From: Hymenobacter psychrotolerans DSM 18569
GTDB taxonomy: Bacteria > Bacteroidota > Bacteroidia > Cytophagales > Hymenobacteraceae
Assembly (NCBI RefSeq): GCF_900142395.1
Contig: NZ_FRAS01000001.1
Coordinates: forward strand, 186,001-250,000
DNA length: 64,000 bases
Direction: 5' to 3'
Shown piece after piece: positions 15,147-55,789 of the stretch (the stretch's first letter is position 1; each line of letters starts with the position of its first letter). The notes under the pieces are model-generated. The model searched no databases and was not told the DNA's origin. It was given only the letters and a program-made list of their open reading frames with translations. The position numbers and the translations under genes are program-made.

Positions 15147-15953
15147 TTAGCTGGTAGCACGCATAGCATTCAGCATGTTGCCGTACACCCGGTTCAGCGA
15201 GTTCAGGTTGCCCGTCAGAGCAGCTACTTCGTCTTTGAACTTTTCGGTGTCCTTGCTGGCGTCCGTCATGTTCTGCATGGCCTGGCTCAGCGTACCGTAG
15301 AACTGGTTCATGGACTTGAGGTGCGTGTTGGCATCCTGCAGTTCCATTTCATACACAGCATTCAGAGCGCCCAAGTTCTTGGTTACGTTCTGTACCTGCA
15401 CGTGATACTCTTTAGCATCCTGCGTGGCATCCGACATGGCGCTCATAGCCTGAGCGGTGTTGGCATACGCCTCGTTGATACGCTCCAGCGAGGTAGCTGC
15501 CGTGCGAACCTTAGCCGTGTACTCCTCCGTAGCGTTGGTAGCGTCGCCCAGCGACGAAAGCTGCTGCGTGGTAGTGCTCAGGCGGTTCAGGCCCTGGCCC
15601 AGCGACGAAATAGCCTCGGGCGTTACGTTGGCATCCTTCAGCATGTCATCCAGCTTGCGCGTCAGACCTTTGCTGTTGTTGTCTTCTACAAACTTGTTGC
15701 TGTTCACCGAAGGATCATATCCTTCCGACAGTTCAGGATACACCAGAGCCCAATCCGGGTCTTTGTGCTGGGGCTGGAAGGCGCTCAGCAGAAAGATGAG
15801 AGCCTCGGTACCCAGACCAATAATGAGCATAGTGTCAGCGCCTTTCCAGTGCTGAATTTTGAATAGAGCTCCGACAATTACGACTGCAGCGCCAATGCCG
15901 TAAACCATCGGCATCACCTTATCGAAGAAAAAATTACCGCCTTTAGCTGCCAT
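15147..15953 (-). CDS. gldL: Type IX secretion/gliding motor protein GldL (PorL)
   Basis: 268 residues. Two N-terminal membrane helices (about 14-33 and 41-58) are followed by a long cytoplasmic helical tail. The conserved membrane glutamate needed for proton coupling is Glu50, in LIIGLGTEALIF. The motif FKIQHWKGAD between the helices is typical of GldL. Five copies surround the GldM dimer in the known motor. Confidence 0.95.
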   Translation of the reverse strand: MAAKGGNFFFDKVMPMVYGIGAAVVIVGALFKIQHWKGADTMLIIGLGTEALIFLLSAFQPQHKDPDWALVYPELSEGYDPSVNSNKFVEDNNSKGLTRKLDDMLKDANVTPEAISSLGQGLNRLSTTTQQLSSLGDATNATEEYTAKVRTAATSLERINEAYANTAQAMSAMSDATQDAKEYHVQVQNVTKNLGALNAVYEMELQDANTHLKSMNQFYGTLSQAMQNMTDASKDTEKFKDEVAALTGNLNSLNRVYGNMLNAMRATS

Positions 15954-16049
15954 GTGAGTTGATTGTGAAAGAAGAGTTTGGTGATTGGGTGAAAAGCAAA
16001 AAAGGAAACGCGGGTGGTGAGGGAATTATGTTGCAGTAAGCGGCTAAAA

Positions 16050-17069
16050 CTAGTTCAGGCTGCTGTTCGTGCCCATGCCAATCTGAATCATGGCAGTGCG
16101 GAAACCGATGAAGGAACGCGAGGAATCCTGGTATTCGAAATTGCGGGTACCCGTTTCGAGGAAGTAAGCAATGTCTTTCCAAGAGCCGCCACGCACTACT
16201 TTGCGAGGCTCGTTATCATCCGGGTTGGTCGGGTTCATGTCCCATACGACTGGTACCGAAGCTTCCATGTAAGCATCGTCGCACCACTCAGCAACGTTGC
16301 CCGACATATCGTACAGGCCAAAGTCGTTGGGGAAGAACGCCCCTACCGGCGAAGTGTAAGCGTAACCATCCGAAGCATAGTCGCCACGGCCGGGCTTAAA
16401 GTTGGCCAGCATGCACCCTTTCGAGTTACGCAGGTAAGGACCACCCCAAGGATAGGTAGCCAAGTCGCGGCCACCACGGGCAGCGTACTCCCATTCGGCT
16501 TCCGAAGGCAAGCGGAAGTTTGGCGTTGGAGCCAGACCTGCTTCTTCGTTTGCAGCATTTTTGTTTTTAGTGCGCCAGTTGCAGAAATACTTAGCGGCGA
16601 ACCAGTCAACTCCGACTACAGGGTAGTCGTCGAAGGCCGGGTGAGTGTAGTAGTACTCCATCAGCGGGTCACCCATGTGATAGGTGAAGTCCCGTACCCA
16701 CACAGTAGTGTCGGGGTACAGTTCCGTCATCACGTACTCTTCCCCCAGAACATCAATTGAATCCTGCCGGATGGCATTCATGAATTGACGGTACTCGTTG
16801 TTGGTGATTTCTGTCTCGTCCATGTAAAAGCCGGCAATAGTTACCTGCTTATTCATGTTCACCATAGACGCCGATATATCCTGGTCAGTCTGGCCCATGT
16901 GGAACGTTCCACCCGGGCAAGGAACCATACCATAAGGAACTTCCTGAGGATTAAATTCGGGACGGTCCTCTGCTCCGACTAGGTCGCCTTGCGGTCCTTT
17001 GCCAAAACCACAGCCCCCCAAAATCAGAGCCGAAATGGCAACGAGAGGCAATACGAGAAACTTGTTCAT
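16050..17069 (-). CDS. gldK: Type IX secretion/gliding lipoprotein GldK (PorK)
   Basis: 339 residues from the ATG at 17067-17069. The longer in-frame start at 17132 would bury the signal peptide. The lipobox LILGGC places the lipidated cysteine at residue 20. The rest is a formylglycine-generating-enzyme (FGE/sulfatase-modifying) fold, with VPGGTFHMGQ-like, RLPSEAEWEYAARGG and VVRGGSWKD motifs. In GldK this fold is structural: it forms the outer-membrane-associated ring with GldN, and enzymatic activity is not expected. Confidence 0.93.
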   Translation of the reverse strand: MNKFLVLPLVAISALILGGCGFGKGPQGDLVGAEDRPEFNPQEVPYGMVPCPGGTFHMGQTDQDISASMVNMNKQVTIAGFYMDETEITNNEYRQFMNAIRQDSIDVLGEEYVMTELYPDTTVWVRDFTYHMGDPLMEYYYTHPAFDDYPVVGVDWFAAKYFCNWRTKNKNAANEEAGLAPTPNFRLPSEAEWEYAARGGRDLATYPWGGPYLRNSKGCMLANFKPGRGDYASDGYAYTSPVGAFFPNDFGLYDMSGNVAEWCDDAYMEASVPVVWDMNPTNPDDNEPRKVVRGGSWKDIAYFLETGTRNFEYQDSSRSFIGFRTAMIQIGMGTNSSLN

Positions 17070-17305
17070 GTGAGGAAGAAAAAGGCTGTTAAGGCGGCGA
17101 TATCCGAAGATTACAATTTTGTGAGCTGGCAAATCTAGCGAATCTTACGTTCGTGCGCAAGCCTATCGCTCAATGCCTTTCGTTTGTCTACGAACCGGCG
17201 GTACTGCCAGTTAAACGATGAGAGGCAAAGAGTTAGTGTGCGTCAGCTAGAAATCCTTTCTCCACGTAATCAGGGCACCGGGGTGGTCCACCACAGCCAA
17301 ATAGT

Positions 17306-18301
17306 CTAGAAGCTATATCGCGGCGTACGAATAGCCGGTTTTGTAGCCATGCCTGGTTTGGGCAGGCGATAGGATAGCATAATCTCGTGCGAGCTCAGTG
17401 CACGCGCATCTTGGTTGAATGCAACAAAGTCGAAGGCGTAGCCCAAGCGCAAAGCATTGTCTTTGGCGAGAGCCAGGCCAGCCATGCCCGTAAACGACTC
17501 GTCGTAGCGGTAACCTAGGCCACCCCAGAACTTGTCATTGAAGGTCGCCCGAACATTTGCCTCGTACGAGTTGTTCTTGAACGTGAACTTTCCATCATCG
17601 CCGAACTTGCCGGGCATCACCATCTTAACCAGCACGGATGGAGTAACAACAACGGACGAAGACGCTTCGATATTGTAACCAGCCGTGAAGTAGGAGTGGT
17701 TTTCGCCGATGTATTTCGCCATATTGCTGCTGCTCGTGCTTTCGCTCGTGAAGTTGTACTCCGAACGGAGCAGGTTGTTCATGCTCAGACCAGCGTAGAA
17801 GGTCGGCGACTCATACCATACACCAACACCTGCGTCGATCTTGCTGTCGGAACCGTCACGTGGTACAGTGGCATCATCCGGGTCGATTGCCCGATAGACT
17901 CCCTTTGACAGGTAGTTATAGATACCCTGAACACCAATGCCCAGTTTGCCTTCGCCTAGCTCAAAGTGCTTCGAATACGAAATCTGGGCGTTCGTCATTT
18001 CGAACTGCGCAATTTCGTCGCGGTAAAGATGAAAGCCGATACCACCACCCAGCACGCGTACTGGCAAGGAGCCGGTAATCATGTAGGTCTTGGGCTCGCC
18101 GCCATCATCGAAGCTGGCTTTGTAGTTGAAGTACTGATAACGGCCGATGGCCGTTATTTCCCCTTGTCCTTTGATGCCGGCATAGGCAGGATTCAGGTAC
18201 ATGCCGTTGAAGCCGTAGTGGGTGAACTGCGGCTGCTGCTGAGCGAGAGCAGTGCCCGCAACGGTGGTCAGCAAGAGGGTGGAAAGTAAAGTTCCCTTCA
18301 T
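17306..18301 (-). CDS. porP: PorP/SprF family type IX secretion outer-membrane protein
   Basis: 331 residues with a signal peptide (MKGTLLSTLLLTTVAGTALA) and the family start QQQPQFTHYGFNGMYLNPAYAG. The alternating pattern and C-terminal aromatic residue fit a beta-barrel outer-membrane protein. It is the first gene of the operon, as in Porphyromonas por loci. A 236-bp gap separates it from gldK, in which I see no clear signal. A Bacteroidota-type promoter lies just upstream. Confidence 0.92.
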   Translation of the reverse strand: MKGTLLSTLLLTTVAGTALAQQQPQFTHYGFNGMYLNPAYAGIKGQGEITAIGRYQYFNYKASFDDGGEPKTYMITGSLPVRVLGGGIGFHLYRDEIAQFEMTNAQISYSKHFELGEGKLGIGVQGIYNYLSKGVYRAIDPDDATVPRDGSDSKIDAGVGVWYESPTFYAGLSMNNLLRSEYNFTSESTSSSNMAKYIGENHSYFTAGYNIEASSSVVVTPSVLVKMVMPGKFGDDGKFTFKNNSYEANVRATFNDKFWGGLGYRYDESFTGMAGLALAKDNALRLGYAFDFVAFNQDARALSSHEIMLSYRLPKPGMATKPAIRTPRYSF

Positions 18302-44369: not shown

Positions 44370-44469
44370 AGGCCGTCATGCTGAGCTTGTCGAAGCATCT
44401 CTACCGTTAGTAACTCACTCGTTACAACGAAGCGGTAGAGATGCTTCGACAAGCTCAGCATGACGGCCT
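44370..44469. repeat. Perfect 37-bp inverted repeat (long-hairpin intergenic repeat, copy 1)
   Basis: Arms 44370-44406 and 44433-44469 are exact reverse complements with a 26-nt loop. The arm core is GTCATGCTGAGCTTGTCGAA followed by GCATCTCTACCG. It lies between the convergent PepSY and MotB-like genes, so it may act as a terminator for both. A related copy is at 52061-52165. Confidence 0.92.
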
Positions 44470-44491: not shown

Positions 44492-45166
44492 TTACATGCG
44501 CCCCACCTTCGGAATCACCTGAATCAGGAAGCGTTTGTTGTCGCCTTCGCGGCGGCCCTGGTAGCGGCCGGTGCCGTAGAAGCCGCTGCCCCCGATGATG
44601 AGCTCGATGTTGCGGTCCTGGCTGAAATTGAGGCCGTTTTGCTTCCAGAGGTTCAGCAGGTTCAGGGCACGGCGGTAGCTGAGCTGGTAGGTGGTTTGCT
44701 CCTCATGGGTGTTGCGCGGGTCGCCCTGCGGGTAGCGGGCGGCCATGCCTTCCACTATCACGAGGTAGCGCACGGGCTGGTCGGTTTTGATGTTTTTGAG
44801 CACCGAGCGCAGCGTCCGGCCAGCCTGCAGGAGCGCAGGCTTGTAGCTGTCCTGGATTTCGTCGCGGCCGGCCTTGAACTGCACCGGTACCAGCAGCTCG
44901 TGCCGTTCGTTGGCGGGGTCGTACTTGAAGTACTGGCCTTCCAGTTGCTGCAGCGAGCGGCGAATTTTGGTAATCTGCTCCAGCTCAGCGGCCTTCACTT
45001 TCAGCTCGCCATTGGCCTGCTTCAGCTCCCCTTCCCGGTCCTTGAACAGCTTGAAGCTGTACACAAACAGCACCAGCATCACTACAAACAAGGACGTCAT
45101 CAGGTCCACGTAGCTGGGCCAGAAGAAGTCGTTGCTTTGGCGTTTGTTGGAGGTGGTGTTGTTCAT
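44492..45166 (-). CDS. MotB/OmpA-like stator protein of the seven-gene locus
   Basis: 224 residues. A 16-residue cytoplasmic tail leads into one membrane helix (about 17-40) with an acidic residue, Asp21 in YVDLMTSLFVVMLVL, at the MotB/ExbD ion-coupling position. A short coiled coil (about 42-75) is followed by an OmpA-type peptidoglycan-binding domain (about 85-224; QLSYRRALNLLNLW and NKRFLIQVIPK at the usual places). It should anchor an ion-driven motor to the cell wall. Its partner is the MotA-like gene 149 bp upstream. No flagellar genes are present. Confidence 0.82.
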   Translation of the reverse strand: MNNTTSNKRQSNDFFWPSYVDLMTSLFVVMLVLFVYSFKLFKDREGELKQANGELKVKAAELEQITKIRRSLQQLEGQYFKYDPANERHELLVPVQFKAGRDEIQDSYKPALLQAGRTLRSVLKNIKTDQPVRYLVIVEGMAARYPQGDPRNTHEEQTTYQLSYRRALNLLNLWKQNGLNFSQDRNIELIIGGSGFYGTGRYQGRREGDNKRFLIQVIPKVGRM

Positions 45167-45181
45167 GGCGTGACCCCACCC

Positions 45182-45310
45182 CCCGCGCCCCTCCCCGGCG
45201 GGGAGGAGGTACCAGACGACTACGGGAGGCTGTACAGGGCGTTTTACTAACGAGAAACTACAACTAGAAAACCAGGACTAGAGCCCCTCCCAACCGGGGA
45301 GGGGTTGGGG
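45182..45310. repeat. GC-rich hairpins between the MotA-like and MotB-like genes
   Basis: Two C-then-G-rich hairpins (CCCCTCCCCGGCGGGGAGG near 45188-45206 and CCCCTCCCAACCGGGGAGGGG near 45283-45303) fill the gap between the paired stator genes. They look like dispersed intergenic elements of this genome type rather than terminators; no T tract follows on the minus strand. Confidence 0.6.
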
Positions 45311-45315
45311 TAGGG

Positions 45316-46776
45316 TTACTGTGGCTGCACGCCCCCGAACAGCTTGTCCATAAACCGCTGAAAACGATTCTTGGACGTGGCCTTCACCAGCACCGTATTC
45401 AGGTTGGAAAGCTCGGAGAGGAGCTTGGCCTGAATCTGCGAGTCTAGTTCCACTTTGCGCATCAGTTCGCGCTGGGTAGCCGTCACGTCGCGGCTGAGGT
45501 CGGCTTGCTGCACGTTGAGGTTCTGGAAAGGCTCCAGCTGTTTCAATAGTTTCTCGAAGATGTTGTCGGCATTGAGCTTGTCGAAGTATTGCTGCCACTT
45601 CTCGTAGGCCAGCTGGGCTTGTCGCTCGTTGTGAGCCAGGCGCTGGTTCATCACGTCGGCGAGCCCTACCCCGGCCTGGTCGATGTGCTGCTCGGCGCGG
45701 TCCTTGAGGTTGCGCAGCTCCACCTGGTGCTTCTGGAAGAAATCCAGCATCAGCTGCACCGAGTTGTTGTTGCCGCCGATGTACTGGCCCAGGTCGTTGA
45801 TGCCCTTCTCGAAGCCGCGCAGCCGGTCCAGAATGCTGTTCACGGCTTCGGCCGAGTGGTAGCCGTTCTGCAGCATCTCGTTCAGGCGCTGCTGGTAGCC
45901 GGTGAAGGCCGCAAACATTTCCGCCGACTCGCGCACCTTCTCAAACACGAGAATATTGGCGGCCGCCATCTTATCGTAGCCGATGGTATCGAGCCGCTCC
46001 AGGAAGTCGCTCTGCACCCGAATGTTCTGCGTCACCTTCTCCATGAGCGGGTTGAACAGCTCCACCTGGCCCACAAACTGCTGGTTGAACGCATCGAGCA
46101 CCGACTTCAGGTTGGTGAGCGAGCTGGCCATATCGGCGTGCAGCACCGGCAGCAGGCGGGCCTGCAGGAAGGTGTAGTACTGATTCTGCTTCCGGTCGAG
46201 TTGCTCGCGGGCCTGGCGCAGCACGCCGTTGCCGAGCAGCGTCAGCAGCAGCCCCACAAAGGAGCCGGTCATGGCAATGAGTACGCCGGTGAGGAAGGGC
46301 GTTAGGGCATTTTCGTCGGACACGCCGTTGCGGGCAATGCCCACAAGACCCAGAATCACGCCCAGAAACGTACCGAGCAGACCCAGATACAGCGGCGTAG
46401 CTACATTGGCCTGCACGGAGTTGTCGAGCACCTCGCTCTGCCGCTCCGATATATCTTTCAGAATACCAAAGTCGGCGGCGGCGCCTTTGTTGTGGCGCAG
46501 GTAGTCGTTGGTATCCAGCAGAATCTCCTGAAACTCGGGCGAGGCGTTTTCGGCCTTGATGAGGTTGGAGGCGAAGGATTCGGGTGGCGCGTCGGCGGCG
46601 TAGTCGGGCAGGTCGCGGCCGTCGGGCAGCACAATGCGGTGTTCCACGCGCAAGGCTTCCTTGGGCGGATACAGCGCGGCCAGCCGCTGCGCATTGGCCC
46701 GCATCCGCAGAAACGTGCGAATCTGCAGGCCCACTACCACGGCTACAACGACGAATTCAAGAATAATTTCAAGCAT
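45316..46776 (-). CDS. MotA/TolQ/ExbB-like proton-channel protein with long cytoplasmic tail
   Basis: 486 residues. Membrane helices at about 4-24, 127-148 and 158-187 match the three-helix ExbB/TolQ/MotA core, including PLYLGLLGTFLGVILGLVG and LTGVLIAMTGSFVGLLLTLL. A cytoplasmic loop of about 100 residues separates helices 1 and 2. Residues 190-486 are a predominantly helical tail. That long tail is unlike MotA or ExbB but recalls ZorA of the Zorya defence system. With the MotB-like protein it should form an ion-driven rotary stator. Confidence 0.82.
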   Translation of the reverse strand: MLEIILEFVVVAVVVGLQIRTFLRMRANAQRLAALYPPKEALRVEHRIVLPDGRDLPDYAADAPPESFASNLIKAENASPEFQEILLDTNDYLRHNKGAAADFGILKDISERQSEVLDNSVQANVATPLYLGLLGTFLGVILGLVGIARNGVSDENALTPFLTGVLIAMTGSFVGLLLTLLGNGVLRQAREQLDRKQNQYYTFLQARLLPVLHADMASSLTNLKSVLDAFNQQFVGQVELFNPLMEKVTQNIRVQSDFLERLDTIGYDKMAAANILVFEKVRESAEMFAAFTGYQQRLNEMLQNGYHSAEAVNSILDRLRGFEKGINDLGQYIGGNNNSVQLMLDFFQKHQVELRNLKDRAEQHIDQAGVGLADVMNQRLAHNERQAQLAYEKWQQYFDKLNADNIFEKLLKQLEPFQNLNVQQADLSRDVTATQRELMRKVELDSQIQAKLLSELSNLNTVLVKATSKNRFQRFMDKLFGGVQPQ

Positions 46777-46821
46777 AGGACTGTAAAGTACGCTATTCCC
46801 GGGCTGCTATCCTGAAAGCAA

Positions 46822-46885
46822 AAGGACCTCACTGCGCCTGAATGAGTCGCAGGTACGATGCTCATTCGGGTGCAATAGGGTCCTT
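46822..46885. repeat. Inverted repeat between the MotA-like and bridging-protein genes
   Basis: Arms 46822-46846 and 46861-46885 pair over 25 nt with about five mismatches, several G-T compatible. The left arm begins AAGGACCT and both arms end at GAATGAG/CTCATTC. The loop is 14 nt. It resembles the long-hairpin repeats of other intergenic sites here. Confidence 0.8.
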
Positions 46886-46909
46886 CCGTTGTCAGAATGA
46901 CGGCTTTTT

Positions 46910-48397
46910 CTACTCGAACCGAATAGCAGCTTTCTGCTCAATGTGCCAGTTGCCGGCCACTTTGCGCAATACCCCCTCCTGCTCGGTCACGATATGCGAC
47001 GCCGGGCCGCTGGGCGGCTGGTAGGTGCACGCCTCGCGCAAAGAATATTGAGCGCTCTGGATGGCGTAGGCGTGTACGGCCGGGTTTGAGGTCACGCGGA
47101 ACGTGGCGGTTTCCGGCTGCTGCGGGTTCAGGCGGATTTCATAAATGCTGTCGTGCTGGGGCTCGTCGGACAGGTCGTATTCGTTGAACGCCCCATTGAC
47201 CGGCACCTTCACATAGCGGGCATGGCTTACGGGCTGCGGCGTCCCGTACGACTCGGGCGAAGGCAGCTGTACCGGCGCTACCAGACTGTCGAATTCATCG
47301 TGCGAGGCCAGCGGCGCCGGGCTGGCAGGTGTTACGGGAGGCAACGCAGGAATGGGAGCCGGCTGCACAGGGGTTGAATAGACTTCGGCCACTTGAGGCG
47401 CTACCGGCTCAGGCTCAATCTGGGCTACCGGTTGCAGCGTGGGCGTGCTACCCGTTGCCGGCCGGCTAGCGGGCTGCTGCGTTGGTTGGCTGCCGGTAGC
47501 AGCGGTCGGCTGCTGAACCTGGGTGGCTCCCCTCTTCTTCAGCTCCGCTTCTACCCGCTGCTGCACCAGCTTTTCCACTTCACGAAGTTGTGCCGGACTC
47601 AGGCGGTCAGCAGGCTTGCCACTGCCACCAGCTACCGGAGCGCTCTGCAAAGCCGAAATTTCTTCGCGCCGACGGTCGATACGGGCGCCCATTTCTTTCT
47701 GGAAGTCGCCGATGCTTTTGCGCATCAGCGCATACAGCACCAGGCTCAGCAAAGACAAAATCAGCGCCAACGGACCAAAGAACTTGTTCATCAGGCTTTC
47801 CCCGGCTCCGCTGCCGGCGGCGGGTTGGCGCTCAGCTACGCCCGCTTCAGCCAGCCCGGCGTCGCCGGATACTTCCGGTGCTCCGGCATCGAGGCTAGCG
47901 GCCGTATCTGCGGCATCTGGCACAGCAGCTTCAGTAGCAGCAAGGCTACCGATGGGCGTACCGTTCTGTACATAGTTGTTCAGGGCCGCTTCCAGCGTGG
48001 CCAGCCGCTGCATTCGGGCCGGGTTAGCCCGCCGCGCCGGCGACGACTTCAGCCGGTTGATGATTTCTGTGGTCAGCTTCTGCAGGCGGGAAGGATTGGA
48101 GCCCAATCCTTTGTACATCGTGCCTTTGCCTTCCAGCGGCTGATACAACGCGCTGTACACCCGCTGGCTATCCGCCTTAATGCTGTTCTCAAATGCCTTC
48201 AATGAGCTACCACAGTTCAGTTGGCTCTTCAGGTTAGCGCGCCCGTTGTCGTCGTACACGTAGCGGACTGTAGCACACCAGATTTGCACTTTCTGCTCAT
48301 CCAGCGTGGGCTGGCCTAGTGGTGTTTGGGCACGGGAGCCCGCCGCCAAAAGCAAGAGACCGGTAAGTAAAGAAGCAGCGCGACGGGAAAGGGTCAT
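46910..48397 (-). CDS. Signal-peptide, single-pass bridging protein of the seven-gene locus
   Basis: 495 residues. The signal peptide ends near residue 23 (GSRA-Q). An extracytoplasmic domain (24-150) has Cys41 and Cys62, which could form a disulphide, followed by an Ala-rich linker. One membrane helix lies at about 206-225 (FFGPLALILSLLSLVLYALM). The Arg/Lys-rich flank RKSIGDFQKEMGARIDRRRE then puts the rest in the cytoplasm: a coiled coil (226-290), a Pro/Gln-rich linker (300-380) and a C-terminal beta-rich domain (395-495). I recognise no family. Its topology suits linking envelope and cytosolic parts of the complex. Confidence 0.8.
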   Translation of the reverse strand: MTLSRRAASLLTGLLLLAAGSRAQTPLGQPTLDEQKVQIWCATVRYVYDDNGRANLKSQLNCGSSLKAFENSIKADSQRVYSALYQPLEGKGTMYKGLGSNPSRLQKLTTEIINRLKSSPARRANPARMQRLATLEAALNNYVQNGTPIGSLAATEAAVPDAADTAASLDAGAPEVSGDAGLAEAGVAERQPAAGSGAGESLMNKFFGPLALILSLLSLVLYALMRKSIGDFQKEMGARIDRRREEISALQSAPVAGGSGKPADRLSPAQLREVEKLVQQRVEAELKKRGATQVQQPTAATGSQPTQQPASRPATGSTPTLQPVAQIEPEPVAPQVAEVYSTPVQPAPIPALPPVTPASPAPLASHDEFDSLVAPVQLPSPESYGTPQPVSHARYVKVPVNGAFNEYDLSDEPQHDSIYEIRLNPQQPETATFRVTSNPAVHAYAIQSAQYSLREACTYQPPSGPASHIVTEQEGVLRKVAGNWHIEQKAAIRFE

Positions 48398-48443
48398 AGG
48401 GCGTTAGTTGGGTAGAGAGCAGGAGGAAGCTAAACTACAGTTG

Positions 48444-48481
48444 AAAGCTGGCTCTTCACACTTGAGGAAAGAGCCAGCTTT
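48444..48481. other. Hairpin between the Hsp70-like and bridging-protein genes
   Basis: AAAGCTGGCTCTT (48444-48456) and AAGAGCCAGCTTT (48469-48481) form a perfect 13-bp stem with a 12-nt loop in the 103-bp gap. The minus-strand 3' side has only TTT, so it may be a partial terminator or an mRNA processing/stability site. Confidence 0.65.
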
Positions 48482-48500
48482 TAACACGACAAGTAATGTG

Positions 48501-51500
48501 CTACGCCTGCAACTCGCGGCTCAGGTTGTAGAGCGCCTGTTTCAGTGGCAGGAAGAACAGGGTTTCCGGTAGGGTTTCGTCGGAGGAAAGCTGGCGCTGG
48601 AACTGGTGCAGGCCTAGGCTCAGGCTGTCCTCAATTTCGCGCTGCAGAATGTCCTTTACGCGCTGACGGTCCACGTCTACGCCAACTTCGCGCAGGTAGG
48701 GCGCTACTTCGTCGCCTTCGAGCACGAGGGTAAGGTAGTTGCGCACGTTTTCCAGCACATTGTCCTTCAGCGTGGCATCTACCTGGTTCAGTTTCAGGCG
48801 CTGCTGGTTAAGCTCAGTGCCTTCCACAGCGCCGCTGTATTTCACCGGCTTGATGCTGTCGTAGTCCGACGTGTTCGACTTTTCTTCGAAAAGCACGCCG
48901 CCGTTGGTAGTAGCTTCCTTGGGGTTGTCGGCCAGGATGACGCGGAAGTTGTGAGGCGGCTCGGTGCCGGTTACGGCTTGGAAAATGGCTTTCGTAATCT
49001 TCTCAATAGCTACCAAGGAACTGCCACCTGCCAGCAGGCGCAGGTAGAGGCTGCCTTTGCCGGAGAAACAGAGGTAGCGCGGCGTTTTCAGGCCGAGATG
49101 CTTGGTGAGCTGGGCCGTGTGGTAGATGATGCTGGTGTAGTGCAGGTAGAACAGCACCCGCAGCTGCCGGCCCTTGCCGAGGCCCAGCGCCTGGGTAAAG
49201 CGCAGGGCATCATCGTACTTGAACAGCAGGCTGGTTACGTCGGCGGAGCCAAAATCGGTGTTGCTGAGGGCGGCGCGCAGGTAGCCTTTGTACTCCTGGT
49301 TTTGCTCGGAGTCGGGCAGGCTTTCCACGTGGCCCACGCCGAGGCGCAGCAGGCCGTTCTGCTTGGGCGCGCCCTGCACGCGGGCGTACCCGTCGCCCCA
49401 CAGGTCGTCGCCGGCGAAGCGGAACGAGGTGCTGTAGGCCGGTTTCTGGTCGGCGAAGAGCAGCAAGTCAGTCGTGCCGCCACCGATGTCGATGTTCACC
49501 ACGTTTTCGTCGCGGTTGGGCACTACCTGGTTGGTGGCCGTGAGGTAGTAGTACGGCGCCACCGATTCGGTGAGGCAGATGGTGGGGCGCTTGGCCTTGA
49601 ATACCTGCTGAAACGACTCGTCCCAGACCTGCTGGAACTGATTGCGCAGGAAGCCATCGAAGCTCAGGGGCGCAAACCACACTACGCGGGTATCTTCCAG
49701 AATGCCGCCGTGCAGCGCTGCCTTGTGGCGCAGCAACAGCAGAATTTCCTTGAAGAAGGCCTCAATGCGCGACACGCCCTGCGGGTCCAGCTCCGCCGAC
49801 CATTTCAGGTTCGTGATGAAGCGGTTTTGGGGTAGCTCCGAGGCATTTTCGGTGTTGATGCTGAAGCCGATGTTGATGTTGCTGAGCACCTTGGCGGGCT
49901 CATTGGCAAACGACGTAGTTTCGCAAACGGCCGTCCGGATCGGGAATTCATACACCGAACCGCCTTCACCCATAAAGGAAGGCACAAACTCCCGGTTCTG
50001 CAGGGTAGCAATATAGGTCCAGATCTGGCCGGCGCCGGTGCGGTAGCGCTGGGCGGCCGATAGGCCGGCATCGGCCACCGGAGCATGTAGCCATTCCACC
50101 TGCACATCAGCCTCGCCAATGGTCAGCGGCCGGGGGTGCGCCGTGGGCGAATCAGCGTAGGCAATGTGGGTGTTGGTGGTACCAAAGTCTACCGCGAAGG
50201 TGAAGCGGCGGGTACCACGGTCCAGCTCGCGCCAGCGCGGCACGAATAGGCCGCGGGCCGGCTCGGCGCCGATGGTGGCGGGCGGGCAGGTCAGCTCTAC
50301 TAGGTCGAAGTGAGTACCGGTCACCTCGTAGTAGGTGCTGCCGGCGGTGGCCATGCTCTTCTGGGTACGCTCGTAGCGGGTGGCCCGGCGGGCGGCACCC
50401 TGCTCCGTAATCCGCTCCCCGTTCACGAAGAACTGCAGATCATAGCGGCGGCTGAGCATGGTGGGCGAGTTGTCGGCGTCCACCAGCATTACCTTGTAAA
50501 GGTCGTTGTACTCGGGCTGGTAGCGCACCTTGTAGAAGGGGAACACGCCCACGCCCACGGTAGCTTTCACGATGCGGCCCTTCTCCAGAATCTCGCGGCC
50601 CTGGGCATCCTTCGGGTTCTGGGGGTTCACGTAGTAGCTGCGCTCAAACGTGATGAAACGCCCCGCCTGCACCGGCACCCGCAGCTGCACGCGCACGTGG
50701 CTGAGGTCGATGGTGAAGGTGAGCAGCTCGGCCAGCTCGTTCTCCGTGAAGTACTCGAAGAAGGCTTGCTTCAGCGGCAACAGGTACGGGAAGCGTGCCC
50801 GACCCTGGCCATCGGCACCGTACTGGAACGTGACTTTGCCGGTGTGAAAACGCTGGGTATTCAACTCGTAGGGCAGTTCTACCAGCGAGTCTTCCAGCAA
50901 GTCGCCTACCGTGAGGTAAGGGTACTTAAAGCCCTTGCCGGGCAGCACACGGCTTTCCAGCGCAACTTCATCGTAATACGGCACCGGCGTGCGGTCGTCC
51001 CAGGGCTGACCGTTGAGATAGTTGGCGCCGGGCATCGTGAGGTTCGGGCGCAGCACCAACGGGCGCGGCCGGCCCGTTGTCGATTCGCGGGTGGGCTGGA
51101 TGAACAGGTCGGAGCTGGTCACGGCCGACTGGTCGGCGCGACCGGGCAGGGGCACGCCTTTCACGCTCACCAGGTTTCCTTGCACATCGGCCAGGGCCGG
51201 GTAGCGGGCGGCAAACTGCTGGGCGCTCCGGTCGCCCTGCATCTGAAGCTGGTTGATTTTGCTGCGGTCGAGGCCCGCGTACACGCTGCCGGCAAACTCG
51301 CGGCGCTGCAGTTGCGGGTAGGCCAGGAACAGCTCGTACACGAACTCCCGGAACTGCGGGTCACGGTCTTCGAGCAGCACCGTTTGCTTATCGAAGTAGT
51401 GGCCGCGGGCCTGCGGGCGCTCCAGGTCCAGGGGCTGCACTTCAGGGCCGGTGAAGAGGATGGTCAGCGGTGAGGTGCCGCCCAATAGGCGCGTACCACC

Positions 51501-51968
51501 TGCTAGTTCCGGCGACTCATAGTACACCAAGTACATGTCGGTGAAGTCGCGGAACCGCTCATCCTGCATGTACAGCTGCAGGGTTTCGCCCAGCAGGCGC
51601 GTGCCCTCCTCCTGCCGCATCCGGCGGATTTCTGCCTCGGCATTCCAGCGACGCAGCGTGATTTTGCGGCCGGCCTGGGTGTAGAGGTGGTAGTTATAGA
51701 GCAGCTCCAGTAGGTCCCAGAAGTGCGTCGTCAGCTCGTGGTACACCGAGCCGGGGTTACGCTGCCCTTCGCGGGCCAGGAAGTCGAAAGCCGTTTCAAA
51801 CAGGTGCATCCGCGCAAAGGGCGTCGGGATGCTCACGGCCAGGTTGCGGGATTTGCCCCCTGCCGGGTCCGTTACGGTGTTGATTTCGGTGCTCGTTACC
51901 GGCGCCGTTTTCTGCCAGCCCTGAACCTGCTGGGAGCCATTATTATGTAAGCGAAGGACTTTGGCCAT
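48501..51968 (-). CDS. Large actin/Hsp70-fold ATPase of the seven-gene locus
   Basis: 1155 residues, about twice a normal DnaK. The first ~590 residues are an unrecognised region. The actin-like ATPase core begins at about 590: phosphate-1 motif FAVDFGTTNTH (591-601) and phosphate-2 motif NIDIGGGTTDLLLF (825-838), with the usual polar loop residues kept. No typical DnaK substrate-binding domain or EEVD-type tail is seen. The overall design recalls the SrfB-type Hsp70-like proteins, but I cannot confirm membership. It lies between the tubulin-like and bridging-protein genes. Confidence 0.82.
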   Translation of the reverse strand: MAKVLRLHNNGSQQVQGWQKTAPVTSTEINTVTDPAGGKSRNLAVSIPTPFARMHLFETAFDFLAREGQRNPGSVYHELTTHFWDLLELLYNYHLYTQAGRKITLRRWNAEAEIRRMRQEEGTRLLGETLQLYMQDERFRDFTDMYLVYYESPELAGGTRLLGGTSPLTILFTGPEVQPLDLERPQARGHYFDKQTVLLEDRDPQFREFVYELFLAYPQLQRREFAGSVYAGLDRSKINQLQMQGDRSAQQFAARYPALADVQGNLVSVKGVPLPGRADQSAVTSSDLFIQPTRESTTGRPRPLVLRPNLTMPGANYLNGQPWDDRTPVPYYDEVALESRVLPGKGFKYPYLTVGDLLEDSLVELPYELNTQRFHTGKVTFQYGADGQGRARFPYLLPLKQAFFEYFTENELAELLTFTIDLSHVRVQLRVPVQAGRFITFERSYYVNPQNPKDAQGREILEKGRIVKATVGVGVFPFYKVRYQPEYNDLYKVMLVDADNSPTMLSRRYDLQFFVNGERITEQGAARRATRYERTQKSMATAGSTYYEVTGTHFDLVELTCPPATIGAEPARGLFVPRWRELDRGTRRFTFAVDFGTTNTHIAYADSPTAHPRPLTIGEADVQVEWLHAPVADAGLSAAQRYRTGAGQIWTYIATLQNREFVPSFMGEGGSVYEFPIRTAVCETTSFANEPAKVLSNINIGFSINTENASELPQNRFITNLKWSAELDPQGVSRIEAFFKEILLLLRHKAALHGGILEDTRVVWFAPLSFDGFLRNQFQQVWDESFQQVFKAKRPTICLTESVAPYYYLTATNQVVPNRDENVVNIDIGGGTTDLLLFADQKPAYSTSFRFAGDDLWGDGYARVQGAPKQNGLLRLGVGHVESLPDSEQNQEYKGYLRAALSNTDFGSADVTSLLFKYDDALRFTQALGLGKGRQLRVLFYLHYTSIIYHTAQLTKHLGLKTPRYLCFSGKGSLYLRLLAGGSSLVAIEKITKAIFQAVTGTEPPHNFRVILADNPKEATTNGGVLFEEKSNTSDYDSIKPVKYSGAVEGTELNQQRLKLNQVDATLKDNVLENVRNYLTLVLEGDEVAPYLREVGVDVDRQRVKDILQREIEDSLSLGLHQFQRQLSSDETLPETLFFLPLKQALYNLSRELQA

Positions 51969-52060
51969 GTGCTGCTGAAATCTATTCTAGAAAGCTTGTT
52001 TCTCACCTCGGATGAGGCGAGGTTACGGGTAGTTGAGTGGCCTAGCGTGTTCCTCCTAGG

Positions 52061-52165
52061 CCGTCATGCTGAGCGAAGTCGAAGCATCTCTACCGCTTCG
52101 TTTTTGATGTCTAGGCCAGTAATTAGCCAGAGGTAGAGATGCTTCGGCTGCGCTCAGCATAACGG
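52061..52165. repeat. Long-hairpin intergenic repeat, copy 2
   Basis: Left arm 52061-52094 and right arm 52132-52165 are inverted copies with a few mismatches. The left arm starts CCGTCATGCTGAGC and ends GAAGCATCTCTACC, matching the copy at 44370-44469. It lies in the 321-bp gap between the tubulin-like and Hsp70-like genes, which otherwise holds only the terminator-like hairpin at its right end. Confidence 0.85.
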
Positions 52166-52255
52166 TCTACAATAGAAATTATACTGGCCTAGCGAAGCAA
52201 CTAAACAACATCAGCAACGAGGTCAACCACCCCAGCAGCGGCTGAAGCCGCCGCG

Positions 52256-52287
52256 TCCCCTCCTCATCTGAGGAGGGGATTTTTTGT
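52256..52287 (+). terminator. Terminator-like hairpin beside the tubulin-like gene stop
   Basis: TCCCCTCCT (52256-52264) and AGGAGGGGA (52271-52279) form a 9-bp stem, followed on the plus strand by TTTTTTG. The T tract is on the plus-strand side although the adjacent gene is on the minus strand. It may act on antisense transcription or be a dispersed repeat. Confidence 0.55.
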
Positions 52288-52289
52288 TC

Positions 52290-53738
52290 TTATACCACCT
52301 TCACCTTCTCCTCAAACGCCTTATCAGTCACATCATAGAACAGCTCCAGCATTTTGCGGAAGCTGTCGGGCTCTTGGATGGACTTCTCGGTTTTGTTGAG
52401 GTTGTCGAGGAGGTAGTTGTGGCTGAGGCCTTTATTGAAGAAGTCGTTCCACTTCTTTTCGACGGGCTTGCCCAGGATCATGGCGTTGAAGTCGTCGGTT
52501 TGCAGGTCGAAGGGACGGAAGGCGCGGCGGTTCTGGGCCAGCTCCTGCAGCCACTGATCCACGCCCGAATCGGGGCTGTGCAGGAAGTTGTTCAGTTCCC
52601 GGAAGATGGGCTCGTTGCGCATGGCATAGTCCAGCTTCAGGTTGTCGGCGTACGGCGCCTTGTCCGTGGGCAGGTGCTGCTTGTGGTAGCGCGTGAAGTA
52701 CAGGAACTGCGTGAGCTGCTTGGCAATGATTTCGCGCGACTCATCGGGCAGGTGGCTGAACTGGATTTCCGGCGCGTCGGCCTGTAGGCCATACTCGTGG
52801 AAGTGCGGGCCGCCGGTGCGCAGTTCGGCGGGCGAGTAGCGCATGAAGTCCACGATGCTCAGGGCCGCCAGCAGCTCAATTACGTGGGCTTTGTTCTTCT
52901 GCTGGGTGCCGCCGGGCTGGTTTTCGTAGGGCGTATCGGGCGTATCGGCGAGGTAGTACAGCGCGTCGAGGCCTTGGAGGTTGTGCTCGTAGTAGCTGAG
53001 CGCCGCCTTGGTTTTCGTCAGGAAGTTGTTGGAGTCGATGACGGCGTTGTCCTCGCTCTGCAGAGCGAAGTAGGGCATCACCGTTACGGCGCCGGTGGGC
53101 GCGTCGCGCAGGTAGCGGGCGTTGCTGAGGCGGGTGTTGGTGTCCTTCAGGTTCTTGAGCATGAGCGGGAAACCTGCTGCCCCCGTGCCTCCGAAGATGC
53201 TCGACACGAAAAATACCCGGTCGCCATCCTGGAAGTTGTCGGCGAAAAACCGCATTTCAGGGCTTTCCACCAGCTTGTTCAGCACAATGCTACCCACGTT
53301 AGGGGAGCCGCGGAAGCCAATGGTCAGCGGGCTTTCCAGGTTATCCTGCGTGAATAGTAGATCCACCAGCCCCTTGGAGTCAACCGATAGACCGTCATAG
53401 CTTAAATACTGCCGGAAGCTCTGGTTGATGCCGCCGAAATCGAAGATAAAAGTGTCCTTCACCGAGCCGTTTACATCCTGCGAGATGCCGCTCAGGGTGC
53501 TGATATCGGTTTTGAAGAAGCCTTCTTCGCGGGGGCCGAGGCGCTTATAGATCTGCTGGTAGCTCTGTAGCAGCTGCACCGTGCGGTTCATGTCGCCGTT
53601 GTGGGCGTCGGGGTCGATGATGATGGGCACTACCCGGTCGCAGTTGGGCAGGTCAACGCCCGCGGCCAGCAGCATGGTGAGCGAGCGAATGACGCGGGAG
53701 CCCGTGCCGCCAATCCCGAATAAAAAGAGTTTAGCCAT
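52290..53738 (-). CDS. Tubulin/FtsZ-fold GTPase-like protein of the seven-gene locus
   Basis: 482 residues. The N-terminal GIGGTGSRVIRSL (8-20) matches the first nucleotide-binding loop of the tubulin superfamily. VSSIFGGTGAAGFPLML (178-194) contains the glycine-rich tubulin signature loop, here GGTGAAG instead of GGGTGTG. IIDPDAH near 40-46 sits where FtsZ contacts the ribose and phosphates. This fits the divergent tubulin-like family (Pfam Tubulin_2 type) rather than cell-division FtsZ. Polymer formation is possible but not shown by sequence. Confidence 0.82.
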   Translation of the reverse strand: MAKLFLFGIGGTGSRVIRSLTMLLAAGVDLPNCDRVVPIIIDPDAHNGDMNRTVQLLQSYQQIYKRLGPREEGFFKTDISTLSGISQDVNGSVKDTFIFDFGGINQSFRQYLSYDGLSVDSKGLVDLLFTQDNLESPLTIGFRGSPNVGSIVLNKLVESPEMRFFADNFQDGDRVFFVSSIFGGTGAAGFPLMLKNLKDTNTRLSNARYLRDAPTGAVTVMPYFALQSEDNAVIDSNNFLTKTKAALSYYEHNLQGLDALYYLADTPDTPYENQPGGTQQKNKAHVIELLAALSIVDFMRYSPAELRTGGPHFHEYGLQADAPEIQFSHLPDESREIIAKQLTQFLYFTRYHKQHLPTDKAPYADNLKLDYAMRNEPIFRELNNFLHSPDSGVDQWLQELAQNRRAFRPFDLQTDDFNAMILGKPVEKKWNDFFNKGLSHNYLLDNLNKTEKSIQEPDSFRKMLELFYDVTDKAFEEKVKVV

Positions 53739-53750
53739 GGTGGGAAGGAA

Positions 53751-53840
53751 GAGCTGAGATCTTAGAGCTTAGAACTGAGAATCTTTCGGATGCCAAAACT
53801 GATACCCTAACGGCTCTAAGTTCTACGCTCTCAATCCTCA
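53751..53840. repeat. Inverted tandem-repeat pair upstream of the tubulin-like gene
   Basis: Short units near CTTAGAG/CTTAGAA/CTGAGAA on the left (53751-53783) are mirrored by CTCTAAG/TTCTACG/CTCTCAA units on the right (about 53813-53840). The pairing is imperfect. It has the same architecture as the repeats at 1814-1900 and 55831-55911 but a different unit. Confidence 0.6.
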
Positions 53841-53849
53841 CTTCTAAAA

Positions 53850-54242
53850 TTAGAAAGGTGTCGTACTCGCGTTGGTGGAGCCTTTGCGCAGAATCAGGGA
53901 GAGAATGAAGAACCAGAACAGGCCTAGGATGGCGTTCCAGGTAGCCAGCCAGTAGATGTAGCTGTGGTCCGTGACCTGCTGGGCGTGCGCCTGGCTGATG
54001 GCCAATCCGAAAGCAATGAGGCCGTTTATTATCAGGAAAATTGCCCAATGGCGACCCTTATTGAAGGTAGCCACGCCCATCATCCGGTTGATGACATAGT
54101 AGAATATGACCACCAGCGCCAGCGAAATGCCAATGTTTAGCAGGCCGATATTGGGGAAAATCACGTCGCGGTACACGGGCGTGTCGGCGGGTGGCTGCGG
54201 GGCTCCGATGAGTTCGTAGATGGAGCGGAATAGTGCTTTCAT
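53850..54242 (-). CDS. Small three-helix membrane protein of the seven-gene locus
   Basis: 130 residues from the ATG at 54240-54242. Membrane helices lie at about 32-51, 65-85 and 94-117, with a 30-residue N-terminal segment (MKALFRSIYELIGAPQPPAD). No conserved charged residue within the helices stands out. I recognise no family. It lies between the vWA-like lipoprotein and the tubulin-like gene and could be a membrane receptor for the cytosolic components. Confidence 0.75.
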   Translation of the reverse strand: MKALFRSIYELIGAPQPPADTPVYRDVIFPNIGLLNIGISLALVVIFYYVINRMMGVATFNKGRHWAIFLIINGLIAFGLAISQAHAQQVTDHSYIYWLATWNAILGLFWFFILSLILRKGSTNASTTPF

Positions 54243-54418
54243 GGAAAGAAGTAGGGCCAACTAGCCGTTGGCAATTCGTTGAACGATGAGGGCGGAACGA
54301 AATTGTAAGCACGACCCCAACTCGGAAGCTGGGCGTTCGACTTCGTTAATGAACGAAAACCATTCCAATTGCGCTAAAAATGATGCTCTGCTGCCGGTGT
54401 AGGCCAGTGCTTCAGCTT

Positions 54419-55789
54419 CTACTCCGCTGGCTGTAAGGTTAATGGCGCCTCGAAAATCGGCTTTTTTTCTGCGCCACTCTGCGCTTCCAGGCCGTCTAGC
54501 AGAGAGCTAAGCGCAAAGGTTTTGGGCGCGGGCGTGGCGTCGTTCTTGGTGGTCCATTGAGCCACCCAGGCGGGGCGCTGGTCTTGCAAACGGAGCACAA
54601 GTGGCCTAGCGGCCTTGGGCTGCTTGGTCAGGCGAACTTTCGCGAAGTGGGTGAACTTGCTTTCGGGGCCGCTGCTGGCGCGGTTCTGGTCGGTGGCGGC
54701 AAATACGTCCAGCAGCTTGGCATCAGTGTCTACGCCCTGCAGCTTCAGGTTTTGCTTGAGGTAGGCCACGTCACGGTACTGGCCGGGCAACTGGCCTAGG
54801 TCTAGGCCTACCACAAACTCCACGGGCTGCTGGGCGGAGGCTTCGCTCACCGATATAACGCGGTAGGTATCGGCGTTGCGCTTGCTGGCCCCGGCGTCGC
54901 CGTAGTACCAGCTGCCTTTGTTCTGAAATTTATTCAGCACCGAATACACGGGCTGTGGGTACGTGACACCGAAGTGGGCTTGCTTGGCCGGTTGTTTTTC
55001 CAGCAGAACCGCATCGAACTGCCGCACGGCGCTGGCGGGGCCCACCACCCAGATATAGTACGGAATTTCAGTGTCGCAGCAGTTGGTTTTCTTGCCCGAG
55101 GCTACCAGCGCCGGGTAATAGGTGCCGCGGAAGTCCGACGTGTACCCGTACACCGACACAGCCAGATCCGGCTTTTCGCCACCACGTGAAAGCGCGTCGG
55201 CAATGTCGGTTTTGATGTAGGGAATAGCCCCGGCGTTTTTCGGGGAGTAGATAAAGTCCGAAATCAGGACGCTCACGGTGCCGGGCCGGTAGTAATTCGT
55301 CATCAGCGTATCAAGCACCGACGGTATGTCCGTGCTTTTGGCCGGCTGCTGAATACCGCTGCGCACCGTTCCGGAAATGGGCTGGTACGAATCCTTATAA
55401 GGCCGCTCCTTGATGCGGTAGAAGGTTTTCTGCCGAACGGCGGTGCTACGGTTTACCTCCGAAAGGAACTGCGCCACATGCTGCTGAAACTTGGTGTTTT
55501 CGCCGCTGGCACCGGTCTTGGGCATAAAGCCCTCCATCGAGCCCGACACCTCCAGGAACACGTTCACGGCCTGCAACGGCTGCGCGGTGGTAGCCGCAGC
55601 TTCAGTGGTAGCAGGTGCCGTTTTGGGCTCGGCGGCTGCAACCGGGGTTTCCACGGGCGGCGTTGCGGTGGTTTCGGTGGCGGCGCCTTCCTCCGTTTTC
55701 ATATCGGAGCGGGAGTAGCAACCGGGCAGCAGCAGCAGAGACAGGCCTAGGGCAGGCAGCAGGCGGGAAAAGGCAGAGAGGTAGCGCAT
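54419..55789 (-). CDS. vWA-like lipoprotein, first gene of the seven-gene locus
   Basis: 456 residues from the ATG at 55787-55789. The lipobox LLLPGC gives lipidated Cys24, followed by a Thr/Ala/Pro linker (30-72). A vWA-like domain begins VNVFLEVSGSMEGF (76-89). The metal-ion-dependent adhesion motif DxSxS appears as ExSxS (Glu80, Ser82, Ser84), with a later SDFIYSP supplying a possible distal Asp. A C-terminal beta-rich region follows (about 330-456). It would be the envelope-exposed adhesion or sensing part of the complex. Confidence 0.75.
   Translation of the reverse strand: MRYLSAFSRLLPALGLSLLLLPGCYSRSDMKTEEGAATETTATPPVETPVAAAEPKTAPATTEAAATTAQPLQAVNVFLEVSGSMEGFMPKTGASGENTKFQQHVAQFLSEVNRSTAVRQKTFYRIKERPYKDSYQPISGTVRSGIQQPAKSTDIPSVLDTLMTNYYRPGTVSVLISDFIYSPKNAGAIPYIKTDIADALSRGGEKPDLAVSVYGYTSDFRGTYYPALVASGKKTNCCDTEIPYYIWVVGPASAVRQFDAVLLEKQPAKQAHFGVTYPQPVYSVLNKFQNKGSWYYGDAGASKRNADTYRVISVSEASAQQPVEFVVGLDLGQLPGQYRDVAYLKQNLKLQGVDTDAKLLDVFAATDQNRASSGPESKFTHFAKVRLTKQPKAARPLVLRLQDQRPAWVAQWTTKNDATPAPKTFALSSLLDGLEAQSGAEKKPIFEAPLTLQPAE

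What the first reader, a model, noticed from the sequence alone, without database searches (positions are those of the whole stretch)
44492..55789. Seven-gene locus combining a MotAB-type motor with both an actin-fold and a tubulin-fold protein
Seven consecutive minus-strand genes encode a MotB/OmpA-like protein, a MotA/ExbB-like channel with a long tail, a single-pass bridging protein, a 1155-residue Hsp70/actin-fold ATPase, a tubulin/FtsZ-fold protein, a three-helix membrane protein and a vWA-like lipoprotein. Folds are read from motifs (DFGTTNTH and DIGGGTTD; GGTGAAG; ExSxS; TM-helix Asp). The predicted locations are envelope exterior, inner membrane and cytosol, so the set could form one envelope-spanning, ion-driven machine. 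Two different cytomotive folds in one locus is rare, and I know of no named system with this composition. Candidate roles are phage defence, envelope remodelling or a surface apparatus.
Basis: partly seen in the sequence, partly recalled or inferred. Interest (0 to 1): 0.88.

Follow-up and report, generated by a model that had tools for sequence, protein, structure and literature searches.

The report
Motor-linked actin–tubulin envelope gene module
Seven neighbouring genes, inherited together in Hymenobacter-like bacteria, appear to encode an ion-driven membrane motor grouped with both an actin-like and a tubulin-like protein, a combination I found in no paper searched and whose job is unknown.

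Summary
Seven minus-strand genes (G-F-E-D-C-B-A) encode a vWA-like lipoprotein, a three-helix membrane protein, an FtsZ/tubulin-fold protein, an actin/Hsp70-fold protein, a single-pass protein and a ZorAB-like MotA/MotB pair. AlphaFold models put E in the FtsZ/tubulin fold and D residues ~586-1037 in the actin/Hsp70 fold; nucleotide-loop and channel residues are near-invariant in 80 relatives. The order holds in 95 of 100 loci. E occurs in 94 of 120 family genomes (43 of 43 same-genus rows); 20 tested E-lacking genomes lack A and full-length D. Outside the family the core G-F-E-D recurs patchily, with MotAB or with other modules (OmpA, TerD, DnaK, WG repeats, L,D-transpeptidase), and on cyanobacterial plasmids. 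Divergent versions replace one another within the genus; in four species one sits inverted at the old site, leaving an orphan C gene. Best reading: a resident, ion-driven envelope machine coupling a ZorAB-type motor to an FtsZl1-like GTPase system; function unproven. The pieces are known (FtsZl1 operons, Makarova & Koonin 2010; Zorya motors); the combination appeared in none of my literature searches.

The parts
54419..55789 (-). G: lipoprotein with a vWA-like domain (456 aa), first gene of the unit
   Evidence: lipobox LPGC; hhalign to own-genome vWA proteins Prob 66, P 5.6e-5; C24 in 79 of 80, Glu/Asp80, S82 and D178 in 80 of 80 loci, but position 84 is Gly in 47 of 80; no Pfam vWA hit at E<=1
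53850..54242 (-). F: small membrane protein, three hydrophobic helices
   Evidence: homologues align from the ATG at 54242; no Pfam family at E<=1
52290..53738 (-). E: FtsZ/tubulin-fold protein with GGTG (10-13) and FGGTGAAG (182-189) loops
   Evidence: AlphaFold pLDDT 80.4 pTM 0.87; Z 15.9 to CetZ 3zid; loop positions tested identical in 80 of 80 loci; Pfam Tubulin E 0.0041, Tubulin_2 E 0.016, both below cut-off
52057..52169 (.). hairpin repeat in the E-D gap, 41-nt arms
48501..51968 (-). D: 1155-aa protein, C-terminal half with actin/Hsp70 fold (DFGTTNTH 594-601, DIGGGTTD 827-834, GxGS 970-973)
   Evidence: AlphaFold pLDDT 79.4 pTM 0.63; Foldseek MreB 8azg E 6.6e-9, DnaK rows; Z 12.2 to MreB 2wus; motif residues tested in 77-80 of 80 loci
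46910..48397 (-). C: single-pass protein, signal-like N-terminus (by eye), helix 202-220, better conserved C-terminal domain ~388-495
   Evidence: no Pfam or PADLOC family at E<=1
45316..46776 (-). B: MotA/ExbB/ZorA-like channel subunit, helices 1-19, 129-147, 164-182, then ~300 residues, presumably cytosolic
   Evidence: Pfam MotA_ExbB E 2.4e-4; PADLOC ZorA2 E 4.4e-5; weak profile match to ZorA 8qyy, E 0.0089, ranked behind unrelated coiled-coil chains; T136 in 79 of 80, P128, S172, G175 in 80 of 80
44492..45166 (-). A: MotB/ZorB-like subunit, one helix with Asp21, OmpA-like periplasmic domain
   Evidence: D21 in 76 of 76 loci
44370..44469 (.). hairpin repeat just past the end of A, 37-nt perfect arms; shares its core with the E-D hairpin; possible terminator (inference)

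Best explanation
The seven genes are one co-inherited module: a variant of the FtsZl1-like (Tubulin_2) envelope systems joined to a ZorAB-type ion motor. Proposed working: five B and two A subunits form an ion-driven motor in the inner membrane. A's OmpA-like domain grips peptidoglycan, and ions pass at A Asp21 next to B Thr136/Ser172. B's long tail passes rotation or tension to the cytosolic partners D (ATP switch, actin/Hsp70 fold) and E (GTP switch, tubulin fold), with C and F as inner-membrane links. The lipoprotein G, probably at the outer membrane, binds a ligand or partner through its vWA-like domain. The machine most likely maintains, remodels or monitors the cell envelope as a resident chromosomal function rather than as a mobile defence island. 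Shown: gene unit, predicted folds of D and E, motor-type residues, co-inheritance, replacement at one site. Inferred: 5:2 assembly, ion flow, nucleotide hydrolysis, topology beyond hydropathy, contacts between the parts, and the cellular role.
For: Order kept in 95 of 100 loci, 76 of 80 in the named set; three of the four named misses run off the contig end and in one the A gene is broken. E in 94 of 120 family genomes and 43 of 43 same-genus rows. A and full-length D absent in 20 of 20 E-lacking genomes tested (one of them 78% complete), present in 6 of 6 E-positive ones. Folds. Nucleotide-loop and channel residues near-invariant. A aligns to ZorB with the Asp in register. dN below dS for all seven genes against three relatives. 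MotAB also beside divergent E-D pairs in three lineages outside the family: L165, L195/L196 and, in another gene order, L171. Several alternative modules are envelope- or wall-linked: OmpA, L,D-transpeptidase, a weak SH3_3 match. 30 of 30 window-type loci share one chromosomal site.
Against: No experiment. Pfam hits of A, B, D and E fall below curated cut-offs. No T7-type catalytic loop was recognised in E, so GTP hydrolysis and polymerisation are open. MotAB is not seen in several relatives' loci (L163, L164, L166, L206-L208), so the motor is not essential to the core; other alternative modules (TerD, DnaK, coiled-coil proteins) are not evidently envelope-linked. Versions are horizontally replaced, unlike most housekeeping genes. 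D's first ~580 residues have no assigned fold.
Confidence: 0.5

Rival explanations
1. A Zorya-like conflict (anti-phage) system: the ZorAB-like motor senses envelope disturbance during infection and its tail activates or recruits the D/E assembly, which contains the infection or stops growth.
For: Closest solved relative of A is the type I Zorya ZorB (PDB 8VVN per PMC11890865); best PADLOC hits are ZorB and ZorA; patchy distribution outside the family (D in 9 and E in 13 of 395 phylum genomes, four of each the window's own or same-genus); exchangeable modules including TerD; in-place replacement; relatives on cyanobacterial plasmids and on three IMG/VR contigs; tubulin, HSP70 and vWA proteins feature in predicted conflict systems (PMC7159879).
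Against: No ZorC, ZorD, ZorE or nuclease hit among the seven. Of 140 flanking proteins from 38 non-window-type loci, 5 of 46 PADLOC families hit more than one protein (no background rate measured, window-type flanks not scanned). Present in every same-genus row listed. 30 of 30 window-type loci sit at one chromosomal site.
Confidence: 0.3
2. A trans-envelope export or surface apparatus: the motor powers movement of a surface polymer or protein, with E and D as cytosolic drivers.
For: Envelope layout suggested by hydropathy and lipobox; other ion-driven motors of this kind power type 9 secretion and gliding (PMC11890865 abstract).
Against: No secretin, pore, pilin or adhesin family hit among the seven. 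No neighbour family occurs in more than 28 of 80 loci, although 5 of 140 flanking proteins hit Omp85 (first 25 of 96 families seen).
Confidence: 0.1
3. Two or more separately working units (MotAB on one side, G-F-E-D-C on the other) that merely travel together.
For: G-F-E-D-C occurs without MotAB in L163, L164 and L166; in L168 MotAB stands beside E without D (that genome is marked 13% contaminated).
Against: MotAB stands with the E-D core in three lineages outside the family, once in another order; A was not found without E or D in the 26 genomes tested.
Confidence: 0.1

Closest known systems
FtsZl1 (Tubulin_2) operons, predicted membrane-remodelling systems (Makarova & Koonin 2010, PMC2875224; parts 1-3 of 5 and a term search seen)
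   Same: Divergent FtsZ-like protein, vWA protein and OmpA-family proteins in conserved operons in diverse bacteria including cyanobacteria; many membrane-associated products.
   Different: The main text holds no 'MotA' or 'ExbB' and names actin only in general remarks, in the parts seen no actin/Hsp70-fold partner; its P-loop GTPase and kinase genes have no hit among the seven. Its supplementary family list was not readable.
Zorya ZorAB motors (PMC11890865; abstract and passages seen)
   Same: A resembles ZorB along its length with the Asp aligned; B resembles ZorA weakly in two helices and has a long C-terminal tail.
   Different: No ZorC/D/E hit; partners are tubulin- and actin-fold proteins; stable chromosomal site in 30 of 30 window-type loci.
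GAP1-N2 GTPase-centric predicted conflict systems (Kaur et al. 2020, PMC7159879; passages and section 29 seen)
   Same: Tubulin, HSP70 and vWA proteins gathered near the membrane.
   Different: Centred on a GTPase; section 29 puts tubulin and HSP70 in non-overlapping themes, mainly in Firmicutes and Actinobacteria; no motor in the passages seen ('mota' 0 occurrences).
T9SS/gliding motor GldLM
   Same: Envelope motor proteins of the same phylum, encoded about 28 kb away in this window.
   Different: Different subunits and partners; no tubulin or actin-fold gene among the five T9SS genes scanned.

Membership tests
FtsZ/tubulin superfamily | tubulin/FtsZ fold with T1 and T4 nucleotide loops | tested here: met
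FtsZ/tubulin superfamily | T7 catalytic loop and filament formation | not tested
   no T7-type motif recognised by eye; no residue-level structural alignment run
FtsZl1 / Tubulin_2 | match to Pfam Tubulin_2 over the curated cut-off | tested here: not met
   window E 14.9 bits against 27; the cyanobacterial relative L207 E, which an extended E profile finds at 6.7e-71, has 40.8 bits
FtsZl1 / Tubulin_2 | operon with a vWA protein | tested here: met
   G, (moderate; MIDAS not canonical)
FtsZl1 / Tubulin_2 | P-loop GTPase or kinase partner (frequent, not universal) | tested here: not met
   no such Pfam hit among the seven at E<=1
Zorya | ZorA and ZorB subunits | tested here: inconclusive
   ZorB1 E 1.4e-13, ZorA2 E 4.4e-5 in PADLOC; NCBIfam ZorB1 24.7 bits against 400
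Zorya | ZorC/ZorD or ZorE effector genes | tested here: not met
   no such hit for the seven proteins at E<=1
Ion-driven 5:2 motors (MotAB/ExbBD/TolQR/ZorAB) | membrane Asp in the B-type subunit and polar Thr/Ser in the A-type subunit | tested here: met
   D21 76 of 76; T136 79 of 80 (Ser in 1); S172 80 of 80; Asp in register with ZorB
Ion-driven 5:2 motors (MotAB/ExbBD/TolQR/ZorAB) | 5:2 stoichiometry and ion flow | not testable with these tools
   needs cryo-EM and an ion-flux assay
Hsp70 / actin superfamily | actin-like ATPase fold with two phosphate loops | tested here: met
DnaK-type Hsp70 | match to Pfam HSP70 including the substrate-binding domain | tested here: not met
   no PF00012 hit for D at E<=1
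GAP1-N2 GTPase-centric conflict system | GAP1-type GTPase | tested here: not met
   no GTPase family hit among the seven at E<=1 other than tubulin

The most novel reading that the evidence does not exclude
A new class of envelope-spanning machine in which an ion-driven rotary motor is mechanically coupled through its tail to both a tubulin-fold and an actin/Hsp70-fold filament or switch, so that ion flow, GTP and ATP act on one assembly from outer-membrane lipoprotein to cytosol; its versions exclude and replace one another at a single genomic slot.
Probability: 0.3. Interest if true: 0.92.

Novelty: new variant of a known kind. Interest (0 to 1): 0.74.

Why it matters
Rotary ion motors and cytomotive filaments are normally studied as separate force generators. 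A conserved unit holding both would give a direct test of whether a stator-type motor can drive or gate a tubulin- or actin-fold assembly. It would also give a tractable model for the FtsZl1 (Tubulin_2) systems predicted in 2010, for which searches listed no experimental study that I recognised. It adds a setting other than Zorya for ZorAB-like motors, which bears on where that defence motor came from.

Tried and rejected
Chance neighbourhood: rejected by order conservation; no other gene family is near the unit in more than 28 of 80 named loci. SrfB as the identity of D was considered from memory; no SrfB hit at E<=1. G as a Pfam vWA: no hit, and its profile finds no vWA structure in the PDB; only the comparison with a nine-protein vWA alignment supports it, while four single vWA proteins gave P 0.009-0.056, partly on other regions. 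Phages: no E relative in 50,697 phage records. Defence island: 140 flanking proteins of 38 loci (39 chosen; L102 gave none; proteins of 700 residues or more dropped; frames chosen mechanically, so some may not be genes) gave 46 PADLOC families, 5 of them with more than one member; mad2 with 6 members is, in my judgement, probably generic methyltransferases, since 4 members hit Pfam methyltransferase models. No background rate was measured and the flanks of the window itself were not scanned with PADLOC. Of 96 Pfam families in the flanks only the 25 commonest were shown; none of these is an integrase or transposase. Literature: searches found no paper that I recognised as describing the combination; only open-licence PMC papers are held. 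In the E+D tree several rows are long or of unusual composition; for G031, whose E and D frames are split, only the best-matching piece of each was used.
Full report
Check of the observation. Seven minus-strand frames lie at 44492-55789. Pfam gives only weak hits: MotA_ExbB for B (E 2.4e-4, 21.3 bits against 22.9), Tubulin and Tubulin_2 for E (0.0041 and 0.016), FtsA-type hits around D's second phosphate loop (0.0056), OmpA for A (0.084), nothing for C and F, nothing convincing for G. PADLOC ranks A as ZorB1 (1.4e-13) and B as ZorA2 (4.4e-5). Profiles of 15 homologues do better for A: it matches solved ZorB 8vvn over positions 5-213 of 221 (E 2.9e-9) with Asp21 in register with the ZorB Asp. 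B matches ZorA weakly (0.0089), behind unrelated coiled-coil chains. Structure prediction gives E an FtsZ/tubulin fold (pLDDT 80.4, pTM 0.87; best Z 15.9 with 214 residues at 3.9 A, the 50 rows shown being FtsZ/tubulin entries by title), although Foldseek alone is modest (best E 3.5e-4, low TM-scores). D has an actin/Hsp70 fold in residues ~586-1037 (pLDDT 79.4, pTM 0.63; Z 12.2 to MreB, 287 residues at 4.1 A; Foldseek E 6.6e-9). G aligns with the genome's nine vWA proteins through the MIDAS region (Prob 66, P 5.6e-5; controls P 0.27-0.78), but its MIDAS is not canonical: Glu replaces Asp in 75 of 80 loci and the third position is Gly in 47 of 80. Hydropathy gives one helix in A, three in B, one in C, three in F, and G has a lipobox.

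One unit. In the family, E is found in 94 of 120 genomes and 6 of 6 genera, mostly once per genome. All 43 same-genus rows have it; 6 of the 26 genomes without a match are not listed, so their kinship is not shown. In 100 loci (80 named, 20 fetched, some strains twice), profiles find all seven in the order G F E D C B A on one strand in 95; five of these have an extra reversed C, and one (L054) has E and D split. Of the other five, four lack A and one (L057) has only G, E and D at that threshold. Among the 80 named loci 76 are complete; L087, L125 and L136 end at or within 260 bases of the contig end after B, and in L119 the A gene is broken into short frames. C and F drift fast: plain BLASTP with the window proteins finds C in 44 and F in 72 of 80. 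Of 20 E-lacking family genomes tested (of 26; one only 78% complete), none has A, and D gives either nothing (2) or a match of about 44 residues in an open frame of 434-470 codons (18), which I read as FtsA; six E-positive controls have both. Window against three relatives, all seven genes have dN below dS. Ion-path and nucleotide-loop residues are near-invariant: A D21 76 of 76, B T136 79 of 80 and S172 80 of 80, D loop positions tested 77-80 of 80, E loop positions tested 80 of 80.

Beyond the family. A D profile finds 9 and an E profile 13 of 395 phylum genomes, four of each being the window's own or same-genus. Reading those loci shows a core G-F-E-D(-C) with exchangeable companions. L165 has MotAB. 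L171 has a diverged MotA-type protein (22.3 bits against 22.9) and an OmpA-type protein in another order. L163 and L164 have WG-repeat proteins, L163 also an aspartyl-protease-like protein; L166 has an L,D-transpeptidase and a weak SH3_3 match. L169 and L170 have OmpA proteins, L170 with TerD; their D matches are weak (3.2e-7 and 5.9e-8). L057 has a DnaK-type Hsp70. L168 has MotAB but no D, in a genome marked 13% contaminated. L167 stops at its contig end. Three IMG/VR contigs carry relatives, two of them G F E D B A. Cyanobacterial plasmids carry G, E and D relatives (G 1e-20 to 2.5e-21, E 4.5e-65 to 6.7e-71, D 1.3e-52 to 3.4e-67; in L207 G is on the other strand) with coiled-coil-like proteins and no MotAB found. 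A Prevotella record has G, E, D and a short C. No phage record matched.

Replacement at one slot. In 30 of 30 window-type loci (L068-L097: Hymenobacter, Solirubrum, two Adhaeribacter) the unit lies beside the same nucleotidyltransferase and a LemA/MamQ-like gene (names: LemA recalled). In four species (L141, L142, L144, L145; L058 is judged the same strain as L144) the same site holds a divergent type II set in the opposite orientation, with an open window-type C gene of 498-541 codons left behind; in L144 the two flanks are 83-84% identical to the window. Some type II and type III loci share other flanking genes (one family in 10 type II and 2 type III loci), which hints at a second shared site. 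An E+D tree of 23 rows needs three changes for the genus on well-supported branches, while rpoB groups it once (82/96; 80% of bootstrap trees). So the unit is kept but its version is exchanged. Composition and long branches weaken the deepest parts of the E+D tree; the in-place inverted copy does not depend on that tree.

How it probably works. From hydropathy and lipobox: G outside the inner membrane, F, C, B and A in it, D and E in the cytosol (inference). A and B have the residues of an ion-driven 5:2 motor, and B has about 300 residues after its last helix, as ZorA has a long tail. In Zorya, peptidoglycan binding by ZorB, the ZorA tail and ion flow are important for function (PMC11890865, abstract and passages). 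By analogy, ion flow would turn or strain B's tail and act on D and E, or D and E would gate the motor. Several alternative modules in relatives face the wall or periplasm, others (TerD, DnaK) do not. Surroundings look ordinary: among 140 proteins flanking 38 non-window-type loci the commonest families are oxidoreductases, FtsX, Omp85 and M16 peptidases, and 5 of 46 PADLOC families hit more than one protein (no background measured). I therefore prefer an envelope upkeep or monitoring machine over a phage-defence island, but keep defence at 0.3 because of the ZorAB kinship, TerD companions, patchiness and version swapping.

What is known. Makarova and Koonin (PMC2875224; parts 1-3 of 5 and a term search seen) described FtsZl1 operons with vWA, GTPase, kinase and OmpA genes and proposed membrane remodelling; the main text has no MotA or ExbB. 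A later paper names these Tubulin_2 proteins FtsZ-like and sets them apart (PMC9871819, passages). Kaur et al. (PMC7159879, passages and section 29) describe GTPase-centred conflict systems with tubulin or HSP70. None of the passages seen has a motor with both folds. E falls below the Tubulin_2 cut-off, while its cyanobacterial relative passes it, so I place E near FtsZl1 without claiming membership. Verdict: a real, conserved unit; new variant of a known, still uncharacterised kind.

Noticed in passing
L141 6278-7891, L142 6231-7853, L144 6265-7860, L145 6202-7695: Orphan, open window-type C genes left beside an inverted type II unit at the same chromosomal site; why the orphan is kept is unexplained.
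   Followed up: partly
L124 5067-6314 and its family: One flanking family occurs in 10 type II and 2 type III loci, hinting at a second site where versions are exchanged.
   Followed up: no
window 12584-18301: Type IX secretion genes gldK, gldL, gldM, gldN and a porP-family gene lie about 28 kb from the unit.
   Followed up: no
window 44370-44469 and 52057-52169: Two large hairpins with a common core lie past A and between E and D; a 31-base pattern of the core, three bases free, occurs exactly twice in the genome.
   Followed up: partly
L195 and L196 (IMG/VR contigs of 103,595 and 58,265 bases): G-F-E-D-B-A sets without a recognised C on contigs catalogued as viral; whether these contigs are viral was not tested.
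   Followed up: no
L207 (Gloeothece plasmid Cy782204), L208 (Picosynechococcus plasmid): Cyanobacterial plasmids carry G, E and D relatives with coiled-coil-like proteins, annotated as hypothetical or tubulin-like.
   Followed up: partly
L054 5001-10288: In genome G031 the E and D genes are each split into two frames, a decaying or wrongly sequenced copy.
   Followed up: no
L119 17767-18328: The A gene appears broken into short frames in Cesiribacteraceae bacterium YIM B00369.
   Followed up: no
L170 1986-6627: An E-D pair with TerD proteins and an OmpA protein, linking this core to TerD-type stress genes.
   Followed up: partly
L056 6333-16386 (genome G058): A second, divergent seven-gene set in a genome that also has the ordinary one, L055.
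   Followed up: partly
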